From the NCBI RefSeq assembly GCF_015775515.1, contig NZ_CP065383.1, positions 2,232,001 through 2,296,000 on the forward strand: a DNA stretch of 64,000 bases. The letters run 5' to 3'. The notes under the pieces are model-generated. The model saw nothing but the letters and a program-made list of their open reading frames with translations. It did no database searches and had not been told where the DNA came from. The translations under genes were made by a program, and so were the position numbers. Source of the DNA: Atribacter laminatus. GTDB taxonomy: Bacteria > Atribacterota > Atribacteria > Atribacterales > Atribacteraceae. Positions 41,144 through 55,361 of the stretch are shown here, piece by piece; position 1 is the stretch's first letter; each line of letters starts with the position of its first letter.

Positions 41144-42982
41144 ATGAAAAGGAATTTATACATATTAATCATAATCTTTTTCTTCATTATAACCTTTACC
41201 GCCGGTGCTCAGATAAAAGATCCGAATACCTATGTTCTTTTAACCATTGGGGAACCTGACAGCATGGATCCTGGATATGCTTACGATTCACATAGCGGTG
41301 AAACATTAACCTTCGTTTACAATAATCTGATTGCCTATGATGGAGAGAATATTTTTAAATTCATACCCATTCTTGCCAATGCTGTTCCTTCTAAAGAAAA
41401 TGGATTGATAACCAACGGTGGGAAAACCTATATTTTCCCGATCCGGAAAGGCGTTTTCTTCCATAATGGAAATGGATTAAGCCCGGATGATGTGGAATAT
41501 ACTTTTGAAAGGAACATTCTTTATGATTCTGTCGGAGGTCCTTATTGGATGATTATAGGAGCTTTATTCGATTGCCAAACCTTGAATGAAATGGTTGCGA
41601 GCAAAATTGGGTTACCGTTAACTGATTTAGTCAATGAAGATGGGTCTTTGAAAAACCAAGAATATGCCGATCGTTTAATTAAATTCTATCATGAAGATAT
41701 TGATCCTGCTATTGAGGTCAAAGACGATAAGGTCATCTTTCATCTGGCGAAACCATTCGCTCCTTTTTTAAGTTTGTTGTCGAAGTATGCATATTGGAGC
41801 AGCATCATGGATAAACAAACCTGTATCGAATGGGGATGCTGGGATGGAAAGGCTGATGGGTGGTGGAAGTATTACAACCAGAAAAAAGAATCTTCACCTT
41901 TATTTAATAAAACCAATGGGACCGGACCGTTTATTTTAACTGAATGGGACCGGACCCAACAGAAAGTAGTATTGAAAAAAAATCAGCAGTACTGGGGTGA
42001 AAAAGCAAAGCTTGAACAAGTTATTATTTGGGGTGTAGACGAATGGAATACCCGCCGGGCAATGTTCGAAGCCGGAGATGCCGATCAGGTTTATGTTCCC
42101 ACCCAGTATATCCAGCAATTAGAGAATTTAAAAGAAAGTCAGGTTTATCAGGAGGAGCGGATTACCATAACAAATTTACAATTCAATTGGACCATCAACA
42201 AAACCAGTCCTTTTTTAGGAAGCGCCCAATTGGATGGGAATGGAATACCTCCCGACTTTTTCACTGATGAAAATTGTCGACGGGCTTTCTGCTATGCTTT
42301 TGATTATGAGGCCATGATTAATGACGTTCTGCAAGGTTATGGGAAAAGAATTGCATCAGTCCTTCCTTCTGATTTATTGGGATACAATGACCAGCTTCCT
42401 CGATATGAATATGATTTGATAAAAGCTAAAGAAGAATTTCAAAAAGCCTGGGATGGTAAGGTTTGGGATAAGGGTTTTCAAGTAACCCTGGCTTATGATA
42501 CCGGGAATGAAGTATTCCAGACTGCCTGCGAAGTATTAAAGGAAAACATCGAATCTTTAAATCCACAGTTTAAAATCGGTATCCAGGGAATACAATGGCC
42601 CAGTTTTCTGGATTCTTTTAAATTAGGTCAGTTACCAGCAATCGTAATCAGCTGGATTGCCGATTACCCCGACCCCCACAACTTAATTTTTAGCCATTAT
42701 CATAGTAATGGAGCAATTGGAGGAGCTCAAGGTGAAGGTTTTGCTGAATTTGCAAAGAATAACTTGAATCAGCAGATTGATGCCGCCCTTAGCGAAACCA
42801 ATCCAGAGGTCCGAAAAAAATTATATGAAAATATTCAAATCGATGCTTACGAACATGCTCTGGGCATACCCTTATTTCAACCCGTTGAAATCCATTTGAT
42901 GAAAAATTGGGTCAAAGATTGGGTGTTTAACCCAATTCAATGTGGTGAAGCTAATTATGATACCATCTATAAAAAAGAGTAA
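41144..42982 (+). CDS. ABC transporter substrate-binding protein, family 5 (peptide/nickel type)
   Basis: A 612-residue exported binding protein (SBP_bac_5). The signal peptide is residues 1-22 (LIIIFFFIITFTAG-AQ). Landmarks are IGEPDSMDPGYAYDS (~36-50), FPIRKGVFFHNGNGLSPDDV split at ~104-123, the GTGPFILTEWDR block and RRAFCYAFDYEAMI (~386). No permease or ATPase genes are linked, so it is an orphan or works with a distant system. Substrates may be peptides, nickel chelates or sugars oligomers. GGAGGGGG supports the start. Confidence 0.9.
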   Translation: MKRNLYILIIIFFFIITFTAGAQIKDPNTYVLLTIGEPDSMDPGYAYDSHSGETLTFVYNNLIAYDGENIFKFIPILANAVPSKENGLITNGGKTYIFPIRKGVFFHNGNGLSPDDVEYTFERNILYDSVGGPYWMIIGALFDCQTLNEMVASKIGLPLTDLVNEDGSLKNQEYADRLIKFYHEDIDPAIEVKDDKVIFHLAKPFAPFLSLLSKYAYWSSIMDKQTCIEWGCWDGKADGWWKYYNQKKESSPLFNKTNGTGPFILTEWDRTQQKVVLKKNQQYWGEKAKLEQVIIWGVDEWNTRRAMFEAGDADQVYVPTQYIQQLENLKESQVYQEERITITNLQFNWTINKTSPFLGSAQLDGNGIPPDFFTDENCRRAFCYAFDYEAMINDVLQGYGKRIASVLPSDLLGYNDQLPRYEYDLIKAKEEFQKAWDGKVWDKGFQVTLAYDTGNEVFQTACEVLKENIESLNPQFKIGIQGIQWPSFLDSFKLGQLPAIVISWIADYPDPHNLIFSHYHSNGAIGGAQGEGFAEFAKNNLNQQIDAALSETNPEVRKKLYENIQIDAYEHALGIPLFQPVEIHLMKNWVKDWVFNPIQCGEANYDTIYKKE

Positions 42983-43060: not shown

Positions 43061-44482
43061 TTAATCCCAAGGGTGTATTCGTTTTCCCGTTTGCTGGGAC
43101 TGTTTTAAAATTTGAAGTGCTTCTTTACCGGTGAGAGTTTGATCGGGTATAAAAGTTTCATCCCTAATAATTCCGTCAAAAAGTCCAGCTTGGTAAGTTA
43201 TCTTGATGGCAGTGTGGTAAGGACGATCTAAGTGACTTATATCAGAGGGAAGAGTTCGGTCTTTTTTAAGATGTTCAAAGTCAAGTAAACAATACAACCA
43301 AAATGCAGCTTCTTTTCTGGTGATGGGTTTATCAGGATAAAAATAATAATTTTCTTCCTTCAATTCCGGATCGATGATTCCCAAATGGATAAGAGTTTCT
43401 ACATATCTACTGGCTGGATCGGTCCACTGAAGATCGATGCAATTCCCATAGGAATAGTGTTTTTTATCCTGAAAGTCTTTTATTGTAGGGACGTAGAGTT
43501 GAATACCGTTTATTTGAACCATCAAGGTGGCGAAATCTTTCCTGGATATCTGGGGAAGATTAGTAAATTTATCAGAATTGATGGTTTTATTTGGATGGAA
43601 TATTCTAAACAATTCTTCCAGACCCCAAAGGAGTCGTGGAGTGGGGCGACTGACAATTGATTCATTAACCACGAATACCTGTCGGTTTTGAACGGCCTGA
43701 ATATTATTAAAGCCAGGGCGTTCATAAATAGAAGGAACTGATGCTCGATTCATCCGACCGGTTTGGGCGATATAGATATCGATGTCTTCAGCCTTAGAAA
43801 GCAGCCGTTCAATACCATAATCGGCAATGCGAGATCCCAATCGGGTGGCAAGGGCATCCGTAGCTACATTTAAACCGCCTGCCATTTCAATGAGCTCATC
43901 AACAATACTTCCCGGAACAATAGTGGAGTATTTATCTCCGATTGCTTCAAAGAAGACCCGAGGACGGTCATTTGGCTCAAAGGAAAATATTTTTGCTTCA
44001 TCCCGGAGGTGTTGGATAAGTTGCTTCGCTGATTTAACACGTCCAGTTATCATGCCAAGCTTTAAAAAATAAGGTTCGAGGTCATTCCAGTTTTCTGGAT
44101 TGAAGTTTATAACCGGGATACCGGCTTTTTTTAAGGTCTCAACAAATCGGGGATAGCGTTCAAGAATAAAATCCCGGATCAGAACGACATCAGGGTTTAA
44201 AGCAATAATTTTCTCTGGATCGGCTCGATAATCACAAACGGTTTTATTAATCACCGAAGGCGGATAATCTTCGCTTCCTGATATTCCAATGATTTGTTCC
44301 TCTGCTCCGAGATAATAAAGGTTCTCAGTATGAGCAGGATAGAGGGATATAATTCGTTGAGCAGGGTGGTTTAAATGGGTTTCCAACCCAGAGTCATCGA
44401 TTATGTTTATTTGAGCCATTCCCAGCCCCGAAATAATTAAAAGCATACAAAGGAAATGAATAATTATTAGTAATTTTTTCAT
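43061..44482 (-). CDS. BtuF/FepB-type binding protein fused to SLH-like repeats
   Basis: A 473-residue exported protein. Residues 1-23 are a signal peptide (LLIISGLGMAQ). Residues ~25-290 form a type III periplasmic binding domain as in vitamin B12, iron-siderophore and heme binders: RIISLYPAHTENLYYLGAEE (43-62), NPDVVLIRDF (~96), PGSIVDELIEMAGGLNVA. Residues ~300-473 hold SLH-like units: ISRKDFATLMVQI, FYPDKPITRKEAAFWLYCLL, then AIKITYQAGLFDGI with FIPDQTLTGKEALQIL. SLH domains attach proteins to cell-wall polymer, so the binder is probably tethered. It is the last gene of a B12-riboswitch-controlled operon. Confidence 0.82.
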   Translation of the reverse strand: MKKLLIIIHFLCMLLIISGLGMAQINIIDDSGLETHLNHPAQRIISLYPAHTENLYYLGAEEQIIGISGSEDYPPSVINKTVCDYRADPEKIIALNPDVVLIRDFILERYPRFVETLKKAGIPVINFNPENWNDLEPYFLKLGMITGRVKSAKQLIQHLRDEAKIFSFEPNDRPRVFFEAIGDKYSTIVPGSIVDELIEMAGGLNVATDALATRLGSRIADYGIERLLSKAEDIDIYIAQTGRMNRASVPSIYERPGFNNIQAVQNRQVFVVNESIVSRPTPRLLWGLEELFRIFHPNKTINSDKFTNLPQISRKDFATLMVQINGIQLYVPTIKDFQDKKHYSYGNCIDLQWTDPASRYVETLIHLGIIDPELKEENYYFYPDKPITRKEAAFWLYCLLDFEHLKKDRTLPSDISHLDRPYHTAIKITYQAGLFDGIIRDETFIPDQTLTGKEALQILKQSQQTGKRIHPWD

Positions 44483-44489
44483 GAGTTGA

Positions 44490-45344
44490 CTACTCCTTTT
44501 TTAAAAGTTTGGATAAATCTTCATTCTGATTGACAGCGCCAAATGAGGGTGATGATTCGTTAATCGCTGTCGCACTGATTGGATAATAACAATTCTTTTC
44601 ATCATCGCTGAATTGTGAAAAATGAATATTTACCTTAAAGACTCTTTTTAGTATCTCTGATTGAAAGGCTTTTTCTTTTTCGGTATAGAGTGATATTCCC
44701 TGGGGTTCAAAGAAAAGAACTCTATCAGCCAATAAGGGAGCCATAAAAAGATCGTGAACCGAAGTAACCACCAGAGATCCTTTCCGAACCAAGTCTTTGA
44801 GTAATTGAATAAAAAATAATGAATAATGAATATCTAAGTTCGAAAAAGGTTCGTCGAGAAGCAGAATTGGTGTTTGCTGACAAAGTGAACGGGCCAGAGC
44901 AACCCGTTGTTTTTCTCCACCACTAATTTCAGTCATTTTTTTGTAGGCTAATTCACTTAAACCAGTTTTTTCTAATATGGATAGAGTGATATGATGGTCT
45001 TTCTGAGAATAATCGGAAAAGTTTGATTTATAGGGATAACGCCCCATAAGAACCGTTTCATAAACGGTAAAGGGAAAATGTACGGCATAATTTTGTGGTA
45101 CGAAGGAAACGAGTTGGGCAATTTTTGATCGTTTATAAGAATGAAGATCAATGCTGTTGAGCCGAATTGAACCTGAGACCGGTTTAAGGAAGCCATTTAA
45201 AATTCGAAGCAAGGTGGTTTTTCCGCTTCCATTTGTTCCTAAAAGGACATAAGAGCAGCCTCTTTCTAAGTTTAGAAAAAGTTTTTTAATAATTGGCTTA
45301 TGGGGTAAATAGTGAAAACTGAGGTTTTCTAAGATAAAACTCAT
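44490..45344 (-). CDS. ABC transporter ATPase (BtuD/FecE type)
   Basis: A ~284-residue ATPase. Walker A GTNGSGKTT, signature ISGGEKQRVALARSL and Walker B LLLDEPFSNLD are intact, and the Q-loop reads SFVPQNY. The start chosen is ATG 45344, which overlaps the permease stop by four bases (ATGA); the frame extends 13 codons further upstream into the permease gene but has no better start. It drives the FecCD permease and the SLH-bearing binding protein. Confidence 0.92.
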   Translation of the reverse strand: MSFILENLSFHYLPHKPIIKKLFLNLERGCSYVLLGTNGSGKTTLLRILNGFLKPVSGSIRLNSIDLHSYKRSKIAQLVSFVPQNYAVHFPFTVYETVLMGRYPYKSNFSDYSQKDHHITLSILEKTGLSELAYKKMTEISGGEKQRVALARSLCQQTPILLLDEPFSNLDIHYSLFFIQLLKDLVRKGSLVVTSVHDLFMAPLLADRVLFFEPQGISLYTEKEKAFQSEILKRVFKVNIHFSQFSDDEKNCYYPISATAINESSPSFGAVNQNEDLSKLLKKE

Positions 45345-46396
45345 TGATATTTTTGTCCTTCCGATTTTACCAGGAGAACGCAAAAAAATGGACCTCCCAA
45401 TAGAGTTGTAATCACTCCAACCGGTATCTCGAGTTGAAAAAAAGCTCGGACAATATTATCGGCAACTAAGAGCAAAAGGGCTCCTCCGATGATGGAAATT
45501 GGAAGGAGTAATCGATGATCGGGTCCTATTACAATTCGGAATAAATGAGGAACGATAAGGCCGACAAACCCGATCACTCCTCCAATTGATACCGCAGCAG
45601 CAATGGCAAAAGAAGAAATAATCAAAGTAAATAACCGAATAAAAACTGGGTTTAAACCTAACTGAAGAGCTTGGTCGTCACCAAGACAGAGGATATTCAG
45701 AGAATCGCTGACCAAAACCAGCATGATGAAAAGGATAACGCTAAAAGGCAATAGGAGGGTGATATTTTGCCAGGTTAATCCTACCAAACTTCCCATGATC
45801 CAAAAAAGGACGCTGCTCACCTCTTCCTTAAAAAGATACTTTAAAAAGCTAATACCAGCTGAAAATATTGAGCTGACAATGACCCCTGATAAGATAAGCC
45901 GAGTTGGGTACAGGGTTTTTCTAGTCCCACCCAAAAGAATAACAATCACTAACGAAATCAATCCCCAAAAAAATGCTAAAAATACCGGATTTTGAAATCC
46001 TAAATAAAGAGCCAGAGCGCCGCCGAAAGCCGCACCAGAAGAAATCCCCAGGGTAAAGGGACTGGCTAAAGGGTTGAGCAGGACCGCTTGAAATAACGTT
46101 CCACATCCAGCGAGAATGCCACCAATCAACATACTTCCCAAAATGCGGGGAAGACGAATATTAAAAACCACATCATGCCATAGTTGATTTTCACTGGTGT
46201 GACTAAACATAATAGTAAGAACATCGAGAAAAGGAATATGAATAAATCCAGAACCACAAAAGAAGAAAAACATTATAACTAACCCACTTAAAAGAATGAA
46301 GGTTAGGATACCCGCTCTTTTTTTTCTTTCAAAGAAAACCCGAGACCGGTCAGCTATCCCTGACCGGTCTCGGATGAATCCACAATGAGTCATCAT
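45341..46396 (-). CDS. ABC transporter permease (BtuC/FecCD family)
   Basis: A 351-residue, ~9-10 helix permease. Family blocks include NIRLPRILGSMLIGGILAGC (split ~83-103), SGAAFGGALAL (~140), LGDDQALQLGLN (~240) and GVIGFVGLIVPHLFRIVIG (~275-293), where the ATPase docks. It begins four bases inside the cbiK stop (ATGA). A perfect 13-bp inverted repeat sits in its first codons (46341-46372). Imported ligand is probably a corrinoid, cobalt chelate or heme-like compound, given the riboswitch. Confidence 0.92.
   Translation of the reverse strand: MMTHCGFIRDRSGIADRSRVFFERKKRAGILTFILLSGLVIMFFFFCGSGFIHIPFLDVLTIMFSHTSENQLWHDVVFNIRLPRILGSMLIGGILAGCGTLFQAVLLNPLASPFTLGISSGAAFGGALALYLGFQNPVFLAFFWGLISLVIVILLGGTRKTLYPTRLILSGVIVSSIFSAGISFLKYLFKEEVSSVLFWIMGSLVGLTWQNITLLLPFSVILFIMLVLVSDSLNILCLGDDQALQLGLNPVFIRLFTLIISSFAIAAAVSIGGVIGFVGLIVPHLFRIVIGPDHRLLLPISIIGGALLLLVADNIVRAFFQLEIPVGVITTLLGGPFFCVLLVKSEGQKYQ
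46341..46372 (-). other. perfect 13-bp inverted repeat in the first codons of the permease gene
   Basis: CGAGACCGGTCAG (46341-46353) and CTGACCGGTCTCG (46360-46372) pair fully around a 6-base loop. Its position 20-55 bases after the permease start codon would place a strong mRNA hairpin in the ribosome-binding path. Confidence 0.75.
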
Positions 46397-47286
46397 TTCT
46401 TAGGAAAGAGGTCTTTGATATGATCAATCCAGATTTGGACCATTTGATCGTTTTCTCCTAAACCATCTAGGGTGGTTTGAACCTCATAGCCAGCTTTTTT
46501 AAGTACCGTCTTCCAGGAATCGGCTTCATCTCCAGCAATATCATTGCGAGCATGGTCTCCGGCGACCAACATAAAGGTTTTTAGGGTGACTCGTTGAGCA
46601 TTCATGGACTGTAACTGGACAAGAACATCTTCGATGGTTGGATACCCTTCAATGGTTCCAACCAGTACCTTGGGTCCATAGTGTTTTTGAAGTATATTTT
46701 GGAGCTGAGAATAACAGCTGTTGGCGGGATGCTCGGTTCCATGACCGACTAAAACCAATACCTCTCCAGCATTGGAAGCGTATTGCTTCATATCGTTTTC
46801 TAAAGCAACCACGATCTTTTCATAATCAACTTCGCTGGTCAGCAAGGGATCACCGATTTCGATTCGAGAAAAAATAGGCTGAAAGTGAGGATCGTTCATG
46901 GTTCCAAAAGCCTTGGTGATGGAAAGAATCTCGTGGAATTCACTCCCCGACATGATTTGCAGAGGTTGAACGACTACTGAAGCAAAACCTTCATCGGCTA
47001 ATTTTGCCAAAGCTGAAATGGGACTGTCGATAATCACGCCATCTCGTTCTTTGAGAATGTTTCGGATAATTCGTGAACCATAACTCAACACGATAGTATA
47101 TTCGGGAAATGCTTGTTGAGCTGCTTTTACCACGTTTTCAATGGAAACAGCAGCTTCATGGTAAGACGTTCCAAAAGCAGCGATGAGTATTGCTGATTTT
47201 TCTTGCTGCTCAGCAGCATAAACTTGAAAACTGGTTAAAATCAATACCACCATTAAAAAAAGAAAAATTGTGTTTTTACAACTCAT
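46393..47286 (-). CDS. cbiK: exported CbiK-type sirohydrochlorin cobaltochelatase
   Basis: A 297-residue chelatase that inserts cobalt into sirohydrochlorin in the anaerobic B12 route. Residues 1-24 are a clear signal peptide (FLMVVLILTSFQVYA-AE), unlike cytosolic CbiK of enterics, but like the periplasmic CbiKP of Desulfovibrio. Metal-site histidines are His182 (VGHGTEHPA) and His245 (VAGDHARND); LIAAFGTSYHEAA (34-46) is the family start. It is first in an operon with a FecCD-type permease and ATPase and an SLH-linked binder, all under a cobalamin riboswitch. A role in metal or tetrapyrrole uptake rather than pathway synthesis is possible. Confidence 0.9.
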   Translation of the reverse strand: MSCKNTIFLFLMVVLILTSFQVYAAEQQEKSAILIAAFGTSYHEAAVSIENVVKAAQQAFPEYTIVLSYGSRIIRNILKERDGVIIDSPISALAKLADEGFASVVVQPLQIMSGSEFHEILSITKAFGTMNDPHFQPIFSRIEIGDPLLTSEVDYEKIVVALENDMKQYASNAGEVLVLVGHGTEHPANSCYSQLQNILQKHYGPKVLVGTIEGYPTIEDVLVQLQSMNAQRVTLKTFMLVAGDHARNDIAGDEADSWKTVLKKAGYEVQTTLDGLGENDQMVQIWIDHIKDLFPKK

Positions 47287-47342
47287 TGCTAAGACCTCCC
47301 TTATGAATTAAATAATATTGGTTCTTTCTTCACCCGGGGGAT

Positions 47343-47384
47343 CAAGCAAAAAAATAAATCGCCTTTTGTCTCTCGCAAAAGCCG
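47343..47384 (-). terminator. riboswitch-controlled terminator before cbiK
   Basis: On the minus strand a 9-bp stem with one mismatch (47360-47368 with 47376-47384, loop CGAGAGA) is followed by ATTTATTTTTTTG. It lies between the cobalamin aptamer and the cbiK start, so ligand binding would favour termination. Confidence 0.8.
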
Positions 47385-47389
47385 AAATT

Positions 47390-47562
47390 TCCCTGATTCC
47401 TCGGGTTGGTATCCTGACTTGAAGGCGCATCCTACTCGGTTCTCCTTCCCAGCTTAATTCGCCAGTGGTTTTTTGAACCTTTCGTTCCTTCTCACAGTGG
47501 CGGGACCGCACCGGATTTTCACCGGTTTCCCAATTTCCCGTGGAAGATTGCTATTCGATTGT
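47390..47562 (-). promoter_or_regulatory. cobalamin riboswitch upstream of cbiK
   Basis: In minus-strand reading the core runs AAACCGGTGAAAATCCGG, GGTCCCGCCACTGTGAG, then the ACTGG / GGAAGG arms and the B12 box AGTCAGGATACC (47408-47419). All are hallmark elements of the Cobalamin family. The adjoining terminator shows transcriptional control. Boundaries are approximate. Confidence 0.95.
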
Positions 47563-47630: not shown

Positions 47631-48329
47631 TTAAAGGTTAGTTTTCTTTAAAATGATACTTGAGAAATATCCATAATGATCGAGTGCGGTTTTATGATTT
47701 AAATCCCGAATCGTCTCTTGATCGGTTCCTATTTCGCAACAGATCTTTCGAACTGAAAACTCTCGGGTTTGGGACTCAAAATGAGCTAAGTTTGCTATTT
47801 GATTGATTTTATAGATAACCACAGTATCACTTAAACCTAAAACCGAAGATATCTTTTCATGGTTTACATCACCGGTGATAACTGATAAAGTTTGGTTGTT
47901 TCCTACTGCTGGAATCTGAAGGCGAGATAGAGCTAATTGATAGGCACTTAAACCTGGAATAATATCAATTTTAATTTCAGGATATTGTTCCTGCAAAAAT
48001 TGATGGAGCTGAAAATAACTGGAATATAAAAAAGGATCTCCGATAATGAGAAATGCCGCTTGATCGTAAAGTTTTAATTTGGTCATCATCGAATCAATAT
48101 TCGATTGAATGATTTCCGAAAATCGAGGATTGGAGAAATATGGAAAATACAACGGAACAATTGAGACACTTTTTGAGATGTAGGGAAGAGCAGTATGATA
48201 AGCTCGGCTGGATAAATCACTTTTCATCGAAGGGACAAATATCAATTGGCTGTTTTCGATGACCTTCTTCGCTTTCACGGTAACCAATTCGGGATCTCCA
48301 GGACCGAGACCAACCACTGACAGTTTCAA
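47631..48329 (-). CDS. cbiL: cobalt-factor II C20-methyltransferase (CbiL)
   Basis: A 232-residue SAM-dependent methyltransferase. The N-terminal LSVVGLGPGDPELVTVKA (3-20) and FLIIGDPFLYSSYFQL (~92-107) with the PGLSAYQLA loop fit the tetrapyrrole methylase fold; the position after cbiGH and the ELVTVKA-IFVPS form support CbiL/CobI over other members. It methylates C20 of the cobalt-precorrin. It overlaps cbiGH by four bases and is the last gene of the cbi operon. Confidence 0.88.
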   Translation of the reverse strand: MKLSVVGLGPGDPELVTVKAKKVIENSQLIFVPSMKSDLSSRAYHTALPYISKSVSIVPLYFPYFSNPRFSEIIQSNIDSMMTKLKLYDQAAFLIIGDPFLYSSYFQLHQFLQEQYPEIKIDIIPGLSAYQLALSRLQIPAVGNNQTLSVITGDVNHEKISSVLGLSDTVVIYKINQIANLAHFESQTREFSVRKICCEIGTDQETIRDLNHKTALDHYGYFSSIILKKTNL

Positions 48330-50026
48330 AGATTATACCCCCTATCAGTAATGAGATATTTTCCAAGGCGTTTGTTTCTTAACCCTCCAATAATCAGCAG
48401 CGTGTTCATGTCAAGATTGGAATGAACCAGCTGTTGGAGCTGGATGAATTCCTTGGTCCCATCTTTTTTAATGATGGCCACGTTGGTTTCTAATCCCCGA
48501 TTTTGTTGAACGATATCAACCAGCTCTTCAATTTTTTGAGACCGATCCTTTTTAACTAAGTTATAGACTACGATTGGAAGCTCAGTTTGAGCAAGGAGTT
48601 GAAGATTGGTGATAATATTATCCCAGCCAATTAAATAATCACTCAGACTGATAACACAAAAACCATTTACCAACGGAGACCCAATCAGAGAAGCCCCCCA
48701 AATGGCTGCTGTAATTCCGGGAACGATACGCCATGGAATGTTTTCTTGGATTGCCAGTTCCACCCCCGGAGCTGTCATTCCAAACACCCCTGAATCGCCA
48801 CTGCTGATTACCGCTACCCGATTCCCTTTTTTAACCAATTCAATCGCTTTTTTTACCCGCTGGATTTCTTCGCCCATCTGGGTAAAAATCGATAGAATGC
48901 GGTTTTGATAACGAAAAGGCACCATTTTTAGATAGGTCTCATACCCAATGATCAGGTCACTTTCTTCAAGGGCTTGTATGGCTTGGATAGTCATCAGGTT
49001 GGGCTGACCGGGTCCGATTCCAACAAACATTAAACTTCCCTGAGGATTCCAGGGGAGTCGTCCTAAGGCAAAGGTCATATCGGGATAGACGGTTTTTCCC
49101 ACTAAAATCTCAGCACCACGAATAATCAACGACGGTTCAGATAAACCGGGAATTTTTAAATGTTTTTGGGCACAAGGAGAATAAAATTCCCCGGAAACAT
49201 TCTTTAGTTGATCTGGTGAATATCCGGTAATATTAATTGAAATTTTTTGAACCAAGGGGAGAAGTGAAGGAACTTTTCGGTCAAGAGTGAGGACTTCAGC
49301 CACTGAAAGGTGGGAATATTTATTTTTTTCAATAAAATCATGGTAAGAATCTACAAATTTATCGAGGGAAAACTGCTTTCGAAATCCAGTTCCGATTACT
49401 AAAGAACGAGGTCGTACAAAAACCGCTTTTGGGGAAGAAAAAATCCGATCAGTGAGATATAAAAAGGGTTCTTGGGGAAATTGGTGGTGAGATGATTGAA
49501 TTTGATATCCAGGGAAATAGGGTGGTGAAAAGGGTTCATCAAAACAAATGGGAATAATTTCGCCCTCTATCAGACGACTTTGAATGGTTTTTAAAAGATA
49601 ATGAGGATCTTCAATTTGGCAATCCAATCGCTCGGCGATCTCTTCTGGACTGAGATAACCGCAGGCATCGGTTCCAGTCGTGATCACCGGTATGAGTTGA
49701 AGCTGTTCAGCAATTAAACGACAGAGGGTATTCATGGAACGGGAATGGCCTCCGTTCACCACGATACAAAACTTGGCAGCTCCATCAATGACGATGATTC
49801 CCGGATCGATCAGTTTGTTTTTGAGAAAGGGCGCAGTCAATCGAGTAGCAATTCCAAGGCTTCCTATAAAAATTAAGATGACATCAGTTTCCCATTTTTC
49901 CTGAAGGTTTTTTTGGGAATTTTTCCAACCTTCGACGAATTGAACTGGTTGCAAAAAATCAAAATCGGCAATATTTTTTGCTAAGAGAGCATAGTGTTTA
50001 TGAAAAGGGAAAATGACGGTTTTCAT
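48326..50026 (-). CDS. cbiGH: fused CbiG - CbiH (precorrin ring-contraction enzymes)
   Basis: A 566-residue fusion. Residues ~1-315 are CbiG: FIGSLGIATRLTAPFLK (~54-70), VVNGGHSRSMNTL (~91) and VIGTGFRKQF (~212) with the C-terminal SVAEVLTLDRK block; CbiG opens the delta-lactone after ring contraction. Residues ~325-566 are CbiH/CobJ, the C17-methyltransferase: LMFVGIGPGQPNLMTIQA (~331-348), AVISSGDSGVFGMTA (~405) and IVPGITAAIWGASLIGSP. The fusion gives stoichiometric coupling of consecutive steps. It overlaps cbiF by 29 bases. Confidence 0.93.
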   Translation of the reverse strand: MKTVIFPFHKHYALLAKNIADFDFLQPVQFVEGWKNSQKNLQEKWETDVILIFIGSLGIATRLTAPFLKNKLIDPGIIVIDGAAKFCIVVNGGHSRSMNTLCRLIAEQLQLIPVITTGTDACGYLSPEEIAERLDCQIEDPHYLLKTIQSRLIEGEIIPICFDEPFSPPYFPGYQIQSSHHQFPQEPFLYLTDRIFSSPKAVFVRPRSLVIGTGFRKQFSLDKFVDSYHDFIEKNKYSHLSVAEVLTLDRKVPSLLPLVQKISINITGYSPDQLKNVSGEFYSPCAQKHLKIPGLSEPSLIIRGAEILVGKTVYPDMTFALGRLPWNPQGSLMFVGIGPGQPNLMTIQAIQALEESDLIIGYETYLKMVPFRYQNRILSIFTQMGEEIQRVKKAIELVKKGNRVAVISSGDSGVFGMTAPGVELAIQENIPWRIVPGITAAIWGASLIGSPLVNGFCVISLSDYLIGWDNIITNLQLLAQTELPIVVYNLVKKDRSQKIEELVDIVQQNRGLETNVAIIKKDGTKEFIQLQQLVHSNLDMNTLLIIGGLRNKRLGKYLITDRGYNL

Positions 50027-50759
50027 TTATCCATTCTCCATAAAGATATGATCGATAGCGCTCCGAATGATTTAAAAAAGGTCCAATCAGGAGCGTTGCA
50101 GAGCGGTGGATTCCAGCCTCTTTTACTGCTTGAGAAATTTTTTCCAAGGTGCTCTGAATAATACGTTCATCCGGCCAAGTTACTCGATAAGCACAGATTA
50201 TTGGGGTCTCTAATGGATATATTTTTGATAATTCTTCAACCACCTGATCGATAAAACCACTACTGAGGAGGATGACCATCGAGGTTCGATGAGCTGCCAG
50301 GGTTGAAAGCTGTTCGCTTTCTGGTACAGGAGTTTGTCCGCCCATTCGAGTAATGATCAGAGTTTGAGTCCCATGGGGAAGAGTGTATTCCTTTTTAATC
50401 CTGGAAGCCACTGCGCCGACCGAGGACACACCGGGTATGACTTGATAGTTGATGCCGCGGTTATCTAATTCATTGATTTGTTCCTGGATTGCTCCATATA
50501 GAGAAGGGTCTCCGGAATGAAGTCGAATAACTAGGTGATTTTGAGAGACTTCTTGGATCATATAATCGATGATTTCTTCGAGCGTATGGGTTGAGCTGTC
50601 AACTAATCTCGTCTGAGGAGAACATACTTTTAGAATGTCATGGTTTACCAAAGAACCGGCATAGATAACACAATCGGCTTTTTCTAAAAGCTTTTTCCCT
50701 TTTAGGGTTATGAGTTCAGGATCTCCTGGTCCTGCGCCGACAAAATAGACCGGGGTCAT
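49998..50759 (-). CDS. cbiF: cobalt-precorrin-4 C11-methyltransferase
   Basis: A 253-residue SAM methyltransferase. PVYFVGAGPGDPELITLKGK (3-22), CVIYAGSLVNHDIL (~30-43), VIRLHSGDPSLYGAIQEQ and LPHGTQTLIITRMGGQTP (~125-142) are the CbiF/CobM signatures. It methylates C11 in the corrin pathway. It starts four bases inside the end of cbiET (ATGA-type overlap). Confidence 0.95.
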   Translation of the reverse strand: MTPVYFVGAGPGDPELITLKGKKLLEKADCVIYAGSLVNHDILKVCSPQTRLVDSSTHTLEEIIDYMIQEVSQNHLVIRLHSGDPSLYGAIQEQINELDNRGINYQVIPGVSSVGAVASRIKKEYTLPHGTQTLIITRMGGQTPVPESEQLSTLAAHRTSMVILLSSGFIDQVVEELSKIYPLETPIICAYRVTWPDERIIQSTLEKISQAVKEAGIHRSATLLIGPFLNHSERYRSYLYGEWINENRHFPFS

Positions 50760-51949
50760 GATTTAACTGCCTTGATAAAAAAAATGGGATTGAGAGATTT
50801 CACCATCAAGTTTTTATCATTGGGATCAATCCGGGATATACTTTGCTGAAAAATCGATAAAGGCTGAAAAGGATTATTTTTTATCCGATTTATCCCCTCA
50901 GTCACATGCAAAAGAGACAGAGCAGTCATAACCAAGATTCCTCCTTTTTTTAATAATTTAGAACTATTATCGATAATCGAGGATAGAGAACCTCCACTTC
51001 CTCCAATAAAAATGCGATCGAAGAGCTTTTGGGGAATGTCGTTCGGTGCTGTACCATGGATGCATTGAACATTATCGATCCTAAAACGTTCACAGTTTTG
51101 CTGAATGAGCTGACAGGCTTCTTGATTTTTTTCCAGAGAAAATAAAATACCTTCGGATATCCGTCGAGCAATATCAATGGTAATGCCGCCTGAACCGCCA
51201 CCTATTTCCAGTACAGTCATGGCTGGTGAGAGCTCCAGTAATGAACAAACCATCATTCGGGTCTCTTTTTTTGAAAAAGGGATATTGGTGCGAATATAAT
51301 CCTCGTCCTCAAAAAAACCGATCCCTTTTCTCTCTCCCGGGGAAAGGTAAATGAGGACAAGATCGCTTTTGGAAAGGTGAGTACTGCAGAGTTCTTGAAC
51401 AGTACCCGATTGGATGAATTCCTCAGGAAGAGACAGGTTGACACCTAACGTTCCCCTCCGGTTGGGAGAAACCAAAGCGGCAATTTTTAGAAGATCGGTT
51501 GCCGAATGAAGACCACCGGTAAAAACCATCATTTCATACCCTTGTTCCAAAGCCAGAATGAACGGTGAGAGTTTTTTATTTCCATGCAAATTGATAATTT
51601 TGAGAGTGTTCCAGTTTATTTTTAAACGACTGCAAAAATACTGAAAACTACTGATTCCGGGGATAACTTCGATATTGAGTGGAAAGTGAAAATTATTCAA
51701 TAAGCTAAAGAGTGTTGCGTCACCGGATATCAAAACCGCAGTCAATTCATGTTTATTTTGAAATTCGATTAATTGATGGAACAAGCTATTCATATTGACG
51801 GTTAATTTAACTTTATTTTGATGTTCCCACAAATCGAGTAAGTCAGGTCGTCCGATTAAAACCTGGGATTGAGCAATGACCTGATGAGCCATGGGGAGTA
51901 GATATTGAGGATTTCCTGGGCCGGTGCTGATAAAAACAATCCTATTCAT
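50756..51949 (-). CDS. cbiET: fused CbiE - CbiT (C5/C15 methyltransferase-decarboxylase)
   Basis: A ~397-residue fusion equal to CobL. The N-terminal ~205 residues are CbiE (IVFISTGPGNPQYLLPMA, VLISGDATLFSLL, IPGISSFQYFCSRL), C5-methylating. The C-terminal part is CbiT, with the SAM loop TVLEIGGGSGGITIDIAR (~241-258) and FDRIFIGGSGGSL, acting at C15 with decarboxylation of the C12 acetate. ATG 51949 after AAAGGA is preferred; ATG 51958 three codons earlier is also possible. It overlaps cbiD's end. Confidence 0.92.
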   Translation of the reverse strand: MNRIVFISTGPGNPQYLLPMAHQVIAQSQVLIGRPDLLDLWEHQNKVKLTVNMNSLFHQLIEFQNKHELTAVLISGDATLFSLLNNFHFPLNIEVIPGISSFQYFCSRLKINWNTLKIINLHGNKKLSPFILALEQGYEMMVFTGGLHSATDLLKIAALVSPNRRGTLGVNLSLPEEFIQSGTVQELCSTHLSKSDLVLIYLSPGERKGIGFFEDEDYIRTNIPFSKKETRMMVCSLLELSPAMTVLEIGGGSGGITIDIARRISEGILFSLEKNQEACQLIQQNCERFRIDNVQCIHGTAPNDIPQKLFDRIFIGGSGGSLSSIIDNSSKLLKKGGILVMTALSLLHVTEGINRIKNNPFQPLSIFQQSISRIDPNDKNLMVKSLNPIFFIKAVKS

Positions 51950-53003
51950 CAAGAACATCCTTTCCCAAGAGGCCTTGTTTTAGCGAAAAAATATATACTT
52001 CAACCGATAACTCACCTTTGATCCTTTTGTTAATTTTCCGAGTAATTTCATGGGCAAGATAATCCCAGAATTGAGCAGCCGTTGGCCAACTAATTAAGAT
52101 TTGAGAAACCTGTTCAGCTGTGGTAGCTAACCAAATATCATCAAAAAATTGAGTTGGTAAACCAAATCGAACTAAATGGGCAAATAGTATTTCTCGTCGG
52201 GCATCGGCAACCTGGTTATGAGTGTTAAATATTCCACCAGCAATTTTTACCATTTTTCCAATTTGACCAATCACAACGATTCTTTTTGCTTTTTCGATTC
52301 GAGCAGTATCCAGAGCAAATCCGATATATCCAGATGTACGGATGATGTATTGAGAATCCCAGCCAAGGCTTTGAGCAAACTTCTCTCCATAATTTCCTGG
52401 AACCAGGACCAAGGTGGGAAACCCCAGAGCGATTCGTTGACGAATTTGTAAGCGAATCGTTTCCATAAAAGAACTTTGTGACATGGGGAAGACTCTTCCC
52501 GTAGTTCCTAAGATAGAAATACCGCCTTCTATACCCAGCTCGGAATTGAATGTTTGGGTTGCTATCTTCGATCCATTCGGAACATATATTTCAACCTGAA
52601 GGTCCCAGTATTTGGGAAGAAATCGCAGTAAGTTATCGGTGATTTGTTTTTTGGGAACGGGATTAATAGCCCATTCTCCTGGTTCGAGATATAAACCCGG
52701 TTTGGTTACTTTTCCAACTCCTTCTCCCCCAATAATCGAGATATTCTGTTTTCCTGGTCTTAGTAGGAGAGAAGCACCGATCAATATACCATCGGTGACA
52801 TCCGGGTCATCGCCAGCATACTTTTTCACCATTGAGAAATAGTGTCCATCGGATCTTACTCCAACTTGAATAATTTCAACGTCGATATATTCTCCATTGG
52901 GAAGCTGAGTCTTGACATAAGAAGGGTCTTTTCCTAAGGCCTTAAAAAGTGCTCCAAGAGCGGCAGCCGATGCACAAGTTCCAGTAGTGATTCCCAATTT
53001 CAT
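51942..53003 (-). CDS. cbiD: cobalt-precorrin-5B C1-methyltransferase
   Basis: A 353-residue enzyme that methylates C1. The N-terminal LGITTGTCASAAALGALFKA (2-21) is diagnostic, with GGEGVGKVTKPGL (~114), TGRVFPMS, and a late FALDTARIEKAKRIVVIGQI region. It starts four bases inside cbiC's end. Length is normal. Confidence 0.95.
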   Translation of the reverse strand: MKLGITTGTCASAAALGALFKALGKDPSYVKTQLPNGEYIDVEIIQVGVRSDGHYFSMVKKYAGDDPDVTDGILIGASLLLRPGKQNISIIGGEGVGKVTKPGLYLEPGEWAINPVPKKQITDNLLRFLPKYWDLQVEIYVPNGSKIATQTFNSELGIEGGISILGTTGRVFPMSQSSFMETIRLQIRQRIALGFPTLVLVPGNYGEKFAQSLGWDSQYIIRTSGYIGFALDTARIEKAKRIVVIGQIGKMVKIAGGIFNTHNQVADARREILFAHLVRFGLPTQFFDDIWLATTAEQVSQILISWPTAAQFWDYLAHEITRKINKRIKGELSVEVYIFSLKQGLLGKDVLDE

Positions 53004-53712: not shown

Positions 53713-53714
53713 CA

Positions 53715-53882
53715 CTGAGATATTCCCCGGGCCGGTCTCCTGGCTTGAAGGTTTTTTCCTACTCGGTTTTCCTTCCCGGCGACATCGCCAGTGGTATAAC
53801 AAACCTTTCGTTCCTTCTCACAGTGGCGGGACCACACCGGATTTTCACCGGTTTCCCGAACACCCGTTGAATGTTTCTATTC
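53715..53882 (-). promoter_or_regulatory. cobalamin riboswitch upstream of cbiC
   Basis: Minus-strand reading gives AAACCGGTGAAAATCCGG, GGTCCCGCCACTGTGAG, an ACTGGCGATGTCGCC arm and the B12 box region AGCCAGGAGACC (53734-53745). It is clearly homologous to the switch at 47390-47562. Together they make cobalamin repress both synthesis and the uptake/chelatase operon. Confidence 0.95.
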
Positions 53883-53975: not shown

Positions 53976-55361
53976 ATGACGCGTGGAATTGTTATTGCTG
54001 CTCCTTATAGTGGCTCCGGTAAAACTACTGTGACTCTTAGCTTGATGCGGGCATTATCTCGTCAATTCCGAGTAGTTCCTTTTAAGATTGGGCCGGATTA
54101 CATCGATCCTTCCTATCACCAAGCTGCTGCTAAAAATGAACCACACAATTTAGATCTTTATTTGCTGGGAGAAGAGAACTTAAAAAAAATGTTTTTCCAG
54201 TCGGTTCGGAAAGATGAAATAGCAATAGTTGAAGGGGTCATGGGATTATTCGATGGATTAGGAACCGAGTCCTGGGCAAGTACCGCTCATGTGGCCAAAA
54301 TTCTTAAGTTGCCGGTTATTTTGGTAGTTGATGTGAGATCGATGTCAACCAGTGCGGCAGCCCTGGTTCACGGCTTTCAGACCTATGATCCCGAGCTTCA
54401 AATGGTGGGAGTTATCTGCAATCTAACCTCAAGCAAAACTCATTATAATCATGTTAAGGAATCCATTGAGAGAGATTGTAACCTCCCAGTTATTGGTCAT
54501 CTTCCTTTTAAAAAATTTCTTGATTTGCCAGAACGCCAGCTGGGCTTGATCCCTGCTTGGCATATAACTGATATCGATAAATGGCTTGATCATTGTGCCG
54601 ATTTTCTTCTTAAAAACGTGAATCTCAACCAGATCATTGACCTTATGAAGCCTTTAGAAAAAGTCGATATCAACTCAAGTCTTCAGGTAAAATTACCTCC
54701 ATCAGAAACAATTCGCATTGGAATTGCCAATGATGGTGCATTCCATTTTTACTACTCTGATGGTTTAGAAGCCTTTCGTTCTGCCGGCGCTGAACTGGTT
54801 TTCTTTAGTCCACTGAATGACAAATTTCTCCCGGAAGGACTGGATGGGATTATTTTGGGGGGAGGCTTCCCAGAAAAATTTGCTTTAAAACTCTCTTATA
54901 ATCAGTCAATGCGGAAATCAATTCGATCGGCGATCGAAAATGGTCTTCCGACTTATGCTGAATGCGGAGGAATGATGTATTTGACTCAGGAAATTGAGAA
55001 TTATACCCATCGTTTTTATCCAATGGTGGGAATTTTTCCAGTAAAGGCGATAATGGGTAAACGGCTCCAGCACTTTGGGTATGTTGAAGCAAAAGTAACC
55101 CGAAATAATATCCTCGCACCGGATGGTGTGGTTTTGCATGGCCATGAATTTCATTATTCTGAGCTGGTAGGCTCTCAACTCAATTCCAGTTACCAAGTTA
55201 AAAAGCCAACAGGAGGGAAAACTTGGGAATCGGGTTTTGTCTATAAGAATTGTTTGGCATCTTATGTACATCTACATTTTTATGCTTATCCAGAATTAAT
55301 TTCTAGTTTTCTCAACCATTGTCGCCAATGGAGGAAAAACCATTCCTATATAATTTCTTAA
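53976..55361 (+). CDS. cbiA: cobyrinic acid a,c-diamide synthase
   Basis: A 461-residue glutamine amidotransferase that amidates two side chains of cobyrinate using ATP. The P-loop APYSGSGKTTVTLSL (8-22), YIDPSYHQAA (~44) and EGVMGLFDGLG (~89) form the ATP domain. The GATase domain has the cysteine in AECGGMMYLTQ (~328) and ends with SYVHLHFYAYPE (~440). It is divergent from cbiC and not covered by either riboswitch. The start has AAAGGATGTTACAAAG upstream. Confidence 0.93.
   Translation: MTRGIVIAAPYSGSGKTTVTLSLMRALSRQFRVVPFKIGPDYIDPSYHQAAAKNEPHNLDLYLLGEENLKKMFFQSVRKDEIAIVEGVMGLFDGLGTESWASTAHVAKILKLPVILVVDVRSMSTSAAALVHGFQTYDPELQMVGVICNLTSSKTHYNHVKESIERDCNLPVIGHLPFKKFLDLPERQLGLIPAWHITDIDKWLDHCADFLLKNVNLNQIIDLMKPLEKVDINSSLQVKLPPSETIRIGIANDGAFHFYYSDGLEAFRSAGAELVFFSPLNDKFLPEGLDGIILGGGFPEKFALKLSYNQSMRKSIRSAIENGLPTYAECGGMMYLTQEIENYTHRFYPMVGIFPVKAIMGKRLQHFGYVEAKVTRNNILAPDGVVLHGHEFHYSELVGSQLNSSYQVKKPTGGKTWESGFVYKNCLASYVHLHFYAYPELISSFLNHCRQWRKNHSYIIS

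What the first reader, a model, noticed from the sequence alone, without database searches (positions are those of the whole stretch)
43061..47562. B12-riboswitch operon pairing an exported cobaltochelatase with an SLH-tethered uptake system
The riboswitch is followed by a signal-peptide CbiK, a FecCD permease, an ATPase and a binding protein, all overlapping or close. A periplasmic chelatase beside an importer suggests that metal or tetrapyrrole is handled outside the membrane before import, for example cobalt loading or corrinoid/heme salvage. Periplasmic CbiK is known in Desulfovibrio; linkage to an importer and SLH binder under a B12 switch is the unusual combination.
Basis: partly seen in the sequence, partly recalled or inferred. 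Interest (0 to 1): 0.62.

Follow-up and report, generated by a model that had tools for sequence, protein, structure and literature searches.

The report
Exported cobalt-inserting enzyme with its importer
This bacterium cannot make the ring that vitamin B12 is built from, yet keeps the later B12 genes beside an exported cobalt-inserting enzyme and an uptake pump, which suggests that it picks up the ring outside, loads cobalt there and imports the product.

Summary
A cobalamin riboswitch (47387-47556, -) heads four tightly packed genes: signal-peptide CbiK, FecCD permease, ATPase and a BtuF-type binding protein with a C-terminal SLH region. The combination is not unusual: it recurs in several phyla, and a B12-element over cbiK and btuCDF was described in Desulfovibrio in 2004. 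Two things add interest. (1) This complete genome has no HemB, HemC or CobA and no other CbiK/CbiX, yet keeps CbiC-D-ET-F-GH-L-A beside the operon; in a related complete genome chelatase, importer and cbi genes form one run. (2) The cobalt importer CbiM tracks a cytosolic chelatase: 3/21 genomes whose only chelatase is exported and importer-linked have a CbiM-family protein, against 18/21 with a cytosolic one (Fisher 7e-6; only about 7 independent contrasts, none opposed, p about 0.06). Best explanation, inferred: CbiK loads cobalt into a scavenged sirohydrochlorin-type ring outside the inner membrane, and the ABC system imports it for CbiL onward. Against: 20 of 29 importer-linked genomes have HemC, so the system is not confined to cells that cannot make the ring. 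Corrinoid or heme uptake are not excluded.

The parts
47387..47556 (-). cobalamin riboswitch heading the importer operon
   Evidence: RF00174, 88.8 bits, E 1.3e-20; same element before the same genes in 12 of 14 importer-linked loci scanned
46393..47286 (-). CbiK-type chelatase with N-terminal signal peptide
   Evidence: PF06180 264.9 bits; model pLDDT 86.6, best PDB match 2xvz periplasmic CbiK of D. vulgaris, TM 0.82/0.92; H182, H245, E116 at the places of Salmonella H145, H207, E89
45341..46396 (-). FecCD-type ABC permease
   Evidence: PF01032 282.8 bits; in a clade of CbiK-linked permeases apart from the sampled BtuC and HmuU
44490..45383 (-). ABC ATPase (likely start ATG at 45344)
   Evidence: PF00005 107 bits; 4-nt overlap with the permease
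43061..44482 (-). BtuF/heme-type solute-binding protein with signal peptide and C-terminal SLH region
   Evidence: PF01497 57.4 bits, SLH 27.1 bits, 30.6 for the C-terminal part; structure prediction unusable (pLDDT 56)
53713..53882 (-). second cobalamin riboswitch, heading the cbi operon
   Evidence: RF00174, 99.5 bits
53000..53704 (-). CbiC, precorrin-8 methylmutase
   Evidence: NCBIfam precorrin-8X methylmutase 159.6 bits, below that model's cut-off
51942..53003 (-). CbiD
   Evidence: TIGR00312 351.9 bits, above cut-off
50756..51958 (-). CbiE-CbiT fusion
   Evidence: TIGR02469 108 bits above cut-off, TIGR02467 89 bits just below
49998..50759 (-). CbiF
   Evidence: TIGR01465 296.5 bits, above cut-off
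48326..50026 (-). CbiG-CbiH fusion
   Evidence: PF11760, PF01890 and PF00590; TIGR01466 217.5 bits
47631..48329 (-). CbiL, the first enzyme to act on the cobalt-loaded ring
   Evidence: TIGR01467 152.9 bits, cut-off 163
53976..55361 (+). CbiA/CobB, divergent
   Evidence: NF002204 506.5 bits, above cut-off

Best explanation
The operon is a B12-repressed system that captures an early tetrapyrrole and brings it in already carrying cobalt. (1) When cobamide is scarce the riboswitch lets the operon be expressed (family knowledge). (2) CbiK, exported, inserts Co2+ into sirohydrochlorin or precorrin-2 obtained from other organisms (inferred). (3) The SLH-bearing binding protein, probably held to the wall or peptidoglycan, hands the cobalt complex to the FecCD permease and ATPase, which import it (inferred). 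(4) In the cytosol CbiL takes it as substrate, and CbiH, F, G, D, ET, C and A finish the corrin ring (genes shown, flux inferred). This would replace ring synthesis (no HemB, HemC, CobA) and the usual cobalt importer (no CbiM) in this genome. Shown: gene order, riboswitches, export signal, catalytic residues, missing genes, recurrence, association with CbiM absence. Inferred: substrate, direction of transport and site of cobalt insertion.
For: The genome is one 3.10-Mb contig, 97.8% complete. It has no HemB, no HemC, no CbiM and no CbiK/CbiX other than this one; its five TP-methylases are CbiF, L, H, ET and the rRNA enzyme RsmI, so no CobA. The cbi genes are kept. In a second complete genome of the same order (G024, no HemB/HemC) CbiK-FecCD-ATPase-binding protein-CbiC-D-ET-F-GH-L form one run behind one riboswitch; G045 is similar. 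Within the phylum, genomes with HemB/HemC and CbiD carry a cytosolic chelatase and CbiM (G007, G010, G012, G015, G017), except G008. Across 42 other genomes, CbiM-family proteins occur in 3/21 with only an exported importer-linked CbiK and in 18/21 with a cytosolic chelatase (p 7e-6); the stricter TIGR00123 gives 0/21 and 12/21 (p 5e-5); independent contrasts: 4.7 of 7 agree, none oppose, p about 0.06. CbiK-linked permeases form two clades apart from BtuC and from unlinked BtuC-like permeases such as the second importer of L080. All importer-linked CbiKs keep both catalytic histidines.
Against: No ligand is known for the binding protein or permease; by sequence the permease is closest to hemin permease HmuU (179.6 bits; BtuC 141) and the binding protein to 4m7o and B12-binding proteins. 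Outside this phylum 20 of 29 importer-linked genomes have HemC, 12 of them with no second chelatase found, so the system is not a simple substitute for ring synthesis. CbiJ was not found in this genome, though neither was it in the control Methanosarcina acetivorans, which has CbiD. Other cobalt routes (CbtX, NiCoT, NikABCDE, CorA) were not searched. Late B12 genes (CbiP, CbiB, CobS, CobU) and B12-dependent enzymes were not searched. The sample is drawn from CbiK relatives, the statistics have few independent contrasts, and groups were defined after looking. G024 has a CbiM-family protein, below the TIGR00123 cut-off.
Confidence: 0.5

Rival explanations
1. The importer is an ordinary corrinoid (cobalamin or cobinamide) salvage system of the BtuFCD kind, and exported CbiK is an accessory, for example one that scavenges cobalt.
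For: Cobalamin riboswitch control; binding protein hits B12-binding proteins (5ysc 55.7 bits, BtuF 32 bits) and the permease hits the BtuC models (215 and 194 bits, below cut-off); the 2004 Desulfovibrio study called the linked importer BtuCDF (PMC545781).
Against: The sampled CbiK-linked permeases form their own clades, and L080 carries a separate BtuC-like importer next to the CbiK-linked one. CbiK has no role on corrinoids that I know of. The retained cbi genes have no ring supply in this genome unless one is imported.
Confidence: 0.22
2. The system handles heme: CbiK acts as a heme-binding or iron-removing protein outside the cell, as proposed for IhtB/FetB of Porphyromonas gingivalis, and the ABC system imports heme, porphyrin or iron.
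For: FetB (9b86, called heme-binding protein) is a homologue, 166 bits and TM 0.81/0.91; the permease is nearest to HmuU; H118 lies in the column of D. vulgaris CbiK chain residue H96, which I recall as its heme ligand (the recollection was not tested); IhtB is proposed to take iron from heme (PMC10913741).
Against: A B12 riboswitch precedes the operon in this phylum and others; the genes sit inside or beside cbi operons, in Desulfobacterota beside CbiL. FetB has D, not H, at the H118 column. The link with CbiM absence is not expected for iron.
Confidence: 0.13
3. CbiK works on metallated rings from neighbours (siroheme, F430-type nickel rings or their breakdown products), removing or exchanging the metal for cobalt before import.
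For: Free sirohydrochlorin in the environment is not documented in anything I read; class II chelatases share one fold and handle Fe, Co and Ni (PMC7689651).
Against: No metal-exchange activity is known to me for CbiK; nothing in the sequence separates insertion from exchange.
Confidence: 0.1
4. The remaining cbi genes are relics; the operon has no part in ring building and cobalt reaches the cell by an unsearched transporter.
For: Late B12 genes were not searched; other predicted cobalt transporters such as CbtX exist (PMC545781, PMC2667541).
Against: All corrin-ring genes in the window are open, two are fused in frame, both operons keep strong riboswitches, and the arrangement recurs in same-genus and same-order genomes.
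Confidence: 0.05

Closest known systems
cbiK-cbiL plus btuCDF under one B12-element in Desulfovibrio (PMC545781), and the periplasmic CbiK of D. vulgaris (PDB 2xvx)
   Same: Exported CbiK, FecCD importer, B12 riboswitch; CbiK 39% identical in the structural alignment, TM 0.82/0.92; the same study noted that cbiK-bearing species lack CbiMNQO. L147 (Desulfobacteraceae) has CbiK-FecCD-ATPase-binding protein-CbiL in that order.
   Different: Here the binding protein carries an SLH region, ring synthesis (HemB, HemC, CobA) is missing, and no second CbiK/CbiX is found. The 2004 paper read the importer as B12 transport and predicted CbtX for cobalt. That the published operon holds the same cbiK as the solved structure is my inference.
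Iht system of Porphyromonas gingivalis (IhtB/FetB plus IhtC-E)
   Same: Exported CbiK homologue, binding protein, permease and ATPase, in an organism reported to lack precorrin-2 synthesis (PMC6461909, citing Roper 2000).
   Different: Iht is described as heme or iron uptake with a TonB receptor; here the context is B12, with a riboswitch and cbi genes.
Tetrapyrrole precursor salvagers (PMC6461909)
   Same: Corrin-ring genes without early ring genes.
   Different: That work verified ALA users; the passages read name no uptake system. Here HemB, HemC and CobA are missing, so the needed precursor lies after CobA.
BtuFCD cobalamin importers
   Same: Binding-protein, permease and ATPase families; riboswitch control.
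   Different: The permease lies in a CbiK-linked clade and scores below the BtuC equivalog cut-offs.

Membership tests
CbiK class II chelatase | PF06180 match above cut-off | tested here: met
   264.9 bits, cut-off 26.2; the NCBIfam equivalog NF047852 gives 219.5, below its cut-off of 400
CbiK class II chelatase | two catalytic histidines in the C-terminal half and the active-site Glu | tested here: met
   H182, H245, E116
CbiK class II chelatase | cobalt insertion into sirohydrochlorin | not testable with these tools
   needs an enzyme assay
Exported CbiK | cleavable signal peptide | tested here: met
   hydrophobic stretch and VYA cleavage-like end, conserved in same-genus relatives; no SignalP run
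BtuFCD cobalamin importer | equivalog-level match of permease, ATPase or binding protein to BtuC/D/F models | tested here: not met
   BtuC 215 (cut-off 461) and 194 (334), BtuD 108 (281), BtuF 45 (234)
BtuFCD cobalamin importer | binds cobalamin | not testable with these tools
   binding assay needed
Heme importer (HmuTUV or Isd type) | equivalog-level match | tested here: not met
   heme ATPase 190 (cut-off 261), IsdE 24 (299)
SLH-anchored protein | SLH repeats, usually three | tested here: inconclusive
   one repeat above cut-off; two more only by eye; same-order relatives below cut-off; model unusable
Tetrapyrrole precursor salvager | corrin-ring genes present, early ring genes absent | tested here: met
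   HemA, HemL and HemD were not searched
Tetrapyrrole precursor salvager | nucleotide-loop genes present | not tested

The most novel reading that the evidence does not exclude
Cobalt enters these cells already bound in a tetrapyrrole: sirohydrochlorin serves as a cobalt carrier that an exported chelatase loads outside and a dedicated ABC importer brings in. This would hold even in species that make the ring themselves but whose only chelatase found is exported; those would have to send the ring out and take it back. It would explain why the cobalt importer CbiM is mostly missing where the only chelatase is exported.
Probability: 0.27. Interest if true: 0.85.

Novelty: new variant of a known kind. 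Interest (0 to 1): 0.58.

Why it matters
Why some CbiK chelatases are exported, and how bacteria that keep the corrin pathway without the early ring genes feed it (Porphyromonas gingivalis was called an enigma), are open questions. The operon offers one testable answer to both, names a candidate importer for early tetrapyrroles, and predicts that cobalt and ring arrive together. It would also mean that genome-based calls of B12 auxotrophy and cobalt transport miss a route.

Tried and rejected
Idea that exported CbiK plus importer simply replaces ring synthesis everywhere: rejected; HemC is missing in only 9 of 29 importer-linked genomes, against 3 of 13 cytosolic ones (the first version with 30 genomes gave p 0.72). 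L096 was first counted as importer-linked and then removed because its permease is on the other strand; L121 was removed from the cytosolic group because of a membrane-anchor-like N-terminus. Structure of the binding protein: model unusable (pLDDT 56), no conclusion drawn. Terminator or promoter between riboswitch and cbiK: nothing above chance. One Pfam call failed on wrong coordinates and was repeated. Literature searches for a described uptake system for sirohydrochlorin found none in the held library; subscription papers are mostly not held.
Full report
What is there. The finding's coordinates hold a cobalamin riboswitch and four genes on the minus strand, as described. Gene junctions are tight: ATGA overlaps between cbiK and the permease and between the permease and the likely ATPase start, then 7 nt. 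CbiK keeps both catalytic histidines and the active-site glutamate, its model is confident (pLDDT 86.6), and its best structural match is the periplasmic CbiK of Desulfovibrio vulgaris, followed by Salmonella CbiK and P. gingivalis FetB. The binding protein has a signal peptide, a PF01497 domain and a C-terminal SLH region with one repeat above Pfam's cut-off. Its structure prediction failed.

Surroundings. The operon follows directly on a second B12-controlled operon, CbiC-D-ET-F-GH-L, with its own riboswitch at 53713-53882; CbiA is divergent. The cbiL gene ends about 75 bp before the importer's riboswitch. Together the window carries ring-modifying enzymes from cobalt-sirohydrochlorin onward; CbiJ was not found in the genome.

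What the genome lacks. The genome is a single 3.10-Mb contig, 97.8% complete. It has no HemB and no HemC. Its five TP-methylase proteins are CbiF, CbiL, CbiGH, CbiET and RsmI, so there is no CobA. PF06180 and PF01903 find only the exported CbiK. It has no CbiM. HemA, HemL and HemD were not searched. The cell therefore appears unable to make sirohydrochlorin, yet keeps the enzymes that use it.

The phylum. Of 50 genomes, those with a strong exported CbiK, importer genes beside it and no HemB/HemC are G000, G002, G003, G004, G023, G024 and G045 (contigs of G003 and G023 end within the importer genes). G018 has the importer and CbiC-CbiD on a contig that ends before any CbiK. G007, G010, G012 and G017 have HemB/HemC, CbiD, a CbiX-like protein and CbiM; G015 has HemB/HemC, CbiD, CbiM and a CbiK without signal peptide. 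G008 is the exception: HemB/HemC, exported CbiK beside CbiC-D, no CbiM, 80% complete. In G024, a complete genome, CbiK, importer and cbi genes run as one block behind one riboswitch. The phylum's name is not told; I take it to be Atribacterota, unverified.

Elsewhere. The 80 best CbiK relatives among named genomes include exported CbiK beside a FecCD importer in Bacillota, Bacteroidota, Thermodesulfobacteriota, Chloroflexota, Synergistota and others. Fourteen importer-linked loci were scanned with Rfam; twelve have a cobalamin riboswitch upstream in the same cluster (all but L101 and L111), while the one cytosolic control, L134, has none in its stretch. Several importer-linked CbiKs are lipoproteins, and some have two chelatase domains in one chain (L078, L111, L125).

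Cobalt route. Fifty of these genomes were searched for HemC, CbiK/CbiX and CbiM; second chelatases and CbiM genes were fetched and classed. After removing L096 and L121, 29 importer-linked genomes remain, 21 with only exported chelatases and 8 with a second one that is cytosolic, against 13 with a cytosolic CbiK. CbiM-family proteins (PF01891): 3/21 against 18/21 of those with any cytosolic chelatase, Fisher p 7e-6. TIGR00123-level CbiM: 0/21 against 12/21, p 5e-5. On the CbiK tree about 7 independent contrasts exist; 4.7 on average agree, none oppose, p about 0.06. In the window's own phylum the count is 1/7 against 6/6, p 0.005. The groups were drawn up after seeing the loci, the genomes are mostly draft, and single genomes are not independent. 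The 2004 study saw the same contrast in a handful of delta-proteobacteria and explained it by a predicted transporter, CbtX; I did not search for CbtX.

HemC is present in 20 of the 29, so the system is not only for cells that cannot make the ring. None of the 9 without HemC has a second, cytosolic chelatase, while 8 of the 20 with HemC do (p 0.03).

The importer. Permeases linked to exported CbiK fall into two clades of 17, with BtuC, HmuU and the sampled unlinked BtuC-like permeases outside. Because the loci were picked through CbiK, unlinked members of these clades may exist elsewhere. By sequence the window's permease is nearest to hemin permease HmuU among solved structures, and the binding protein to 4m7o and B12-binding proteins, so the ligand cannot be read from homology.

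Explanation. The most economical reading is that a sirohydrochlorin-type ring from outside gets cobalt from exported CbiK and enters through the dedicated importer, to be used by CbiL. The gene losses in this genome and the CbiM pattern elsewhere both fit. The least secure step is the substrate; corrinoid or heme uptake remain possible. In species that make the ring themselves, the model requires either extra salvage or export and re-import, for which there is no direct evidence.

Novelty. The gene combination is known: Desulfovibrio 2004 for riboswitch, cbiK and importer; Iht for CbiK homologue and importer; Shelton and colleagues for precursor salvagers. New here are the tie to loss of ring synthesis in a complete genome, the SLH-bearing binding protein, and the broader pattern of chelatase location against cobalt import.

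Noticed in passing
L078:9968-11737, L111:4136-6277, L125:8804-11146: Exported CbiK proteins with two chelatase domains in one chain (590-781 aa frames), with lipoprotein-type signals in L111 and L125.
   Followed up: partly
L109:9269-10795: Halanaerobium: CbiF and CbiK fused in one 509-aa frame.
   Followed up: no
window 41144-42982 (+): Lone family-5 solute-binding protein (SBP_bac_5), nearest model NikA but far below its cut-off, convergent with the operon; a possible metal or peptide binder.
   Followed up: no
G000 genome: CbiJ (PF02571) not found although the other corrin-ring genes are present.
   Followed up: partly
window CbiK Q110; L009 and L052 Q; L047 F: A histidine that is nearly invariant in CbiK (Salmonella H83) is Q or F in several exported CbiKs of this order.
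   Followed up: no
L106:10911-11861 and L081:10889-11797: A lipoprotein-like protein of about 300 aa without Pfam match sits between exported CbiK and the binding protein in gut Clostridia.
   Followed up: no
L098 (G082): A genome with cytosolic CbiK but neither HemC nor CbiM found, and an unlinked BtuC-like importer; fits neither pattern.
   Followed up: no
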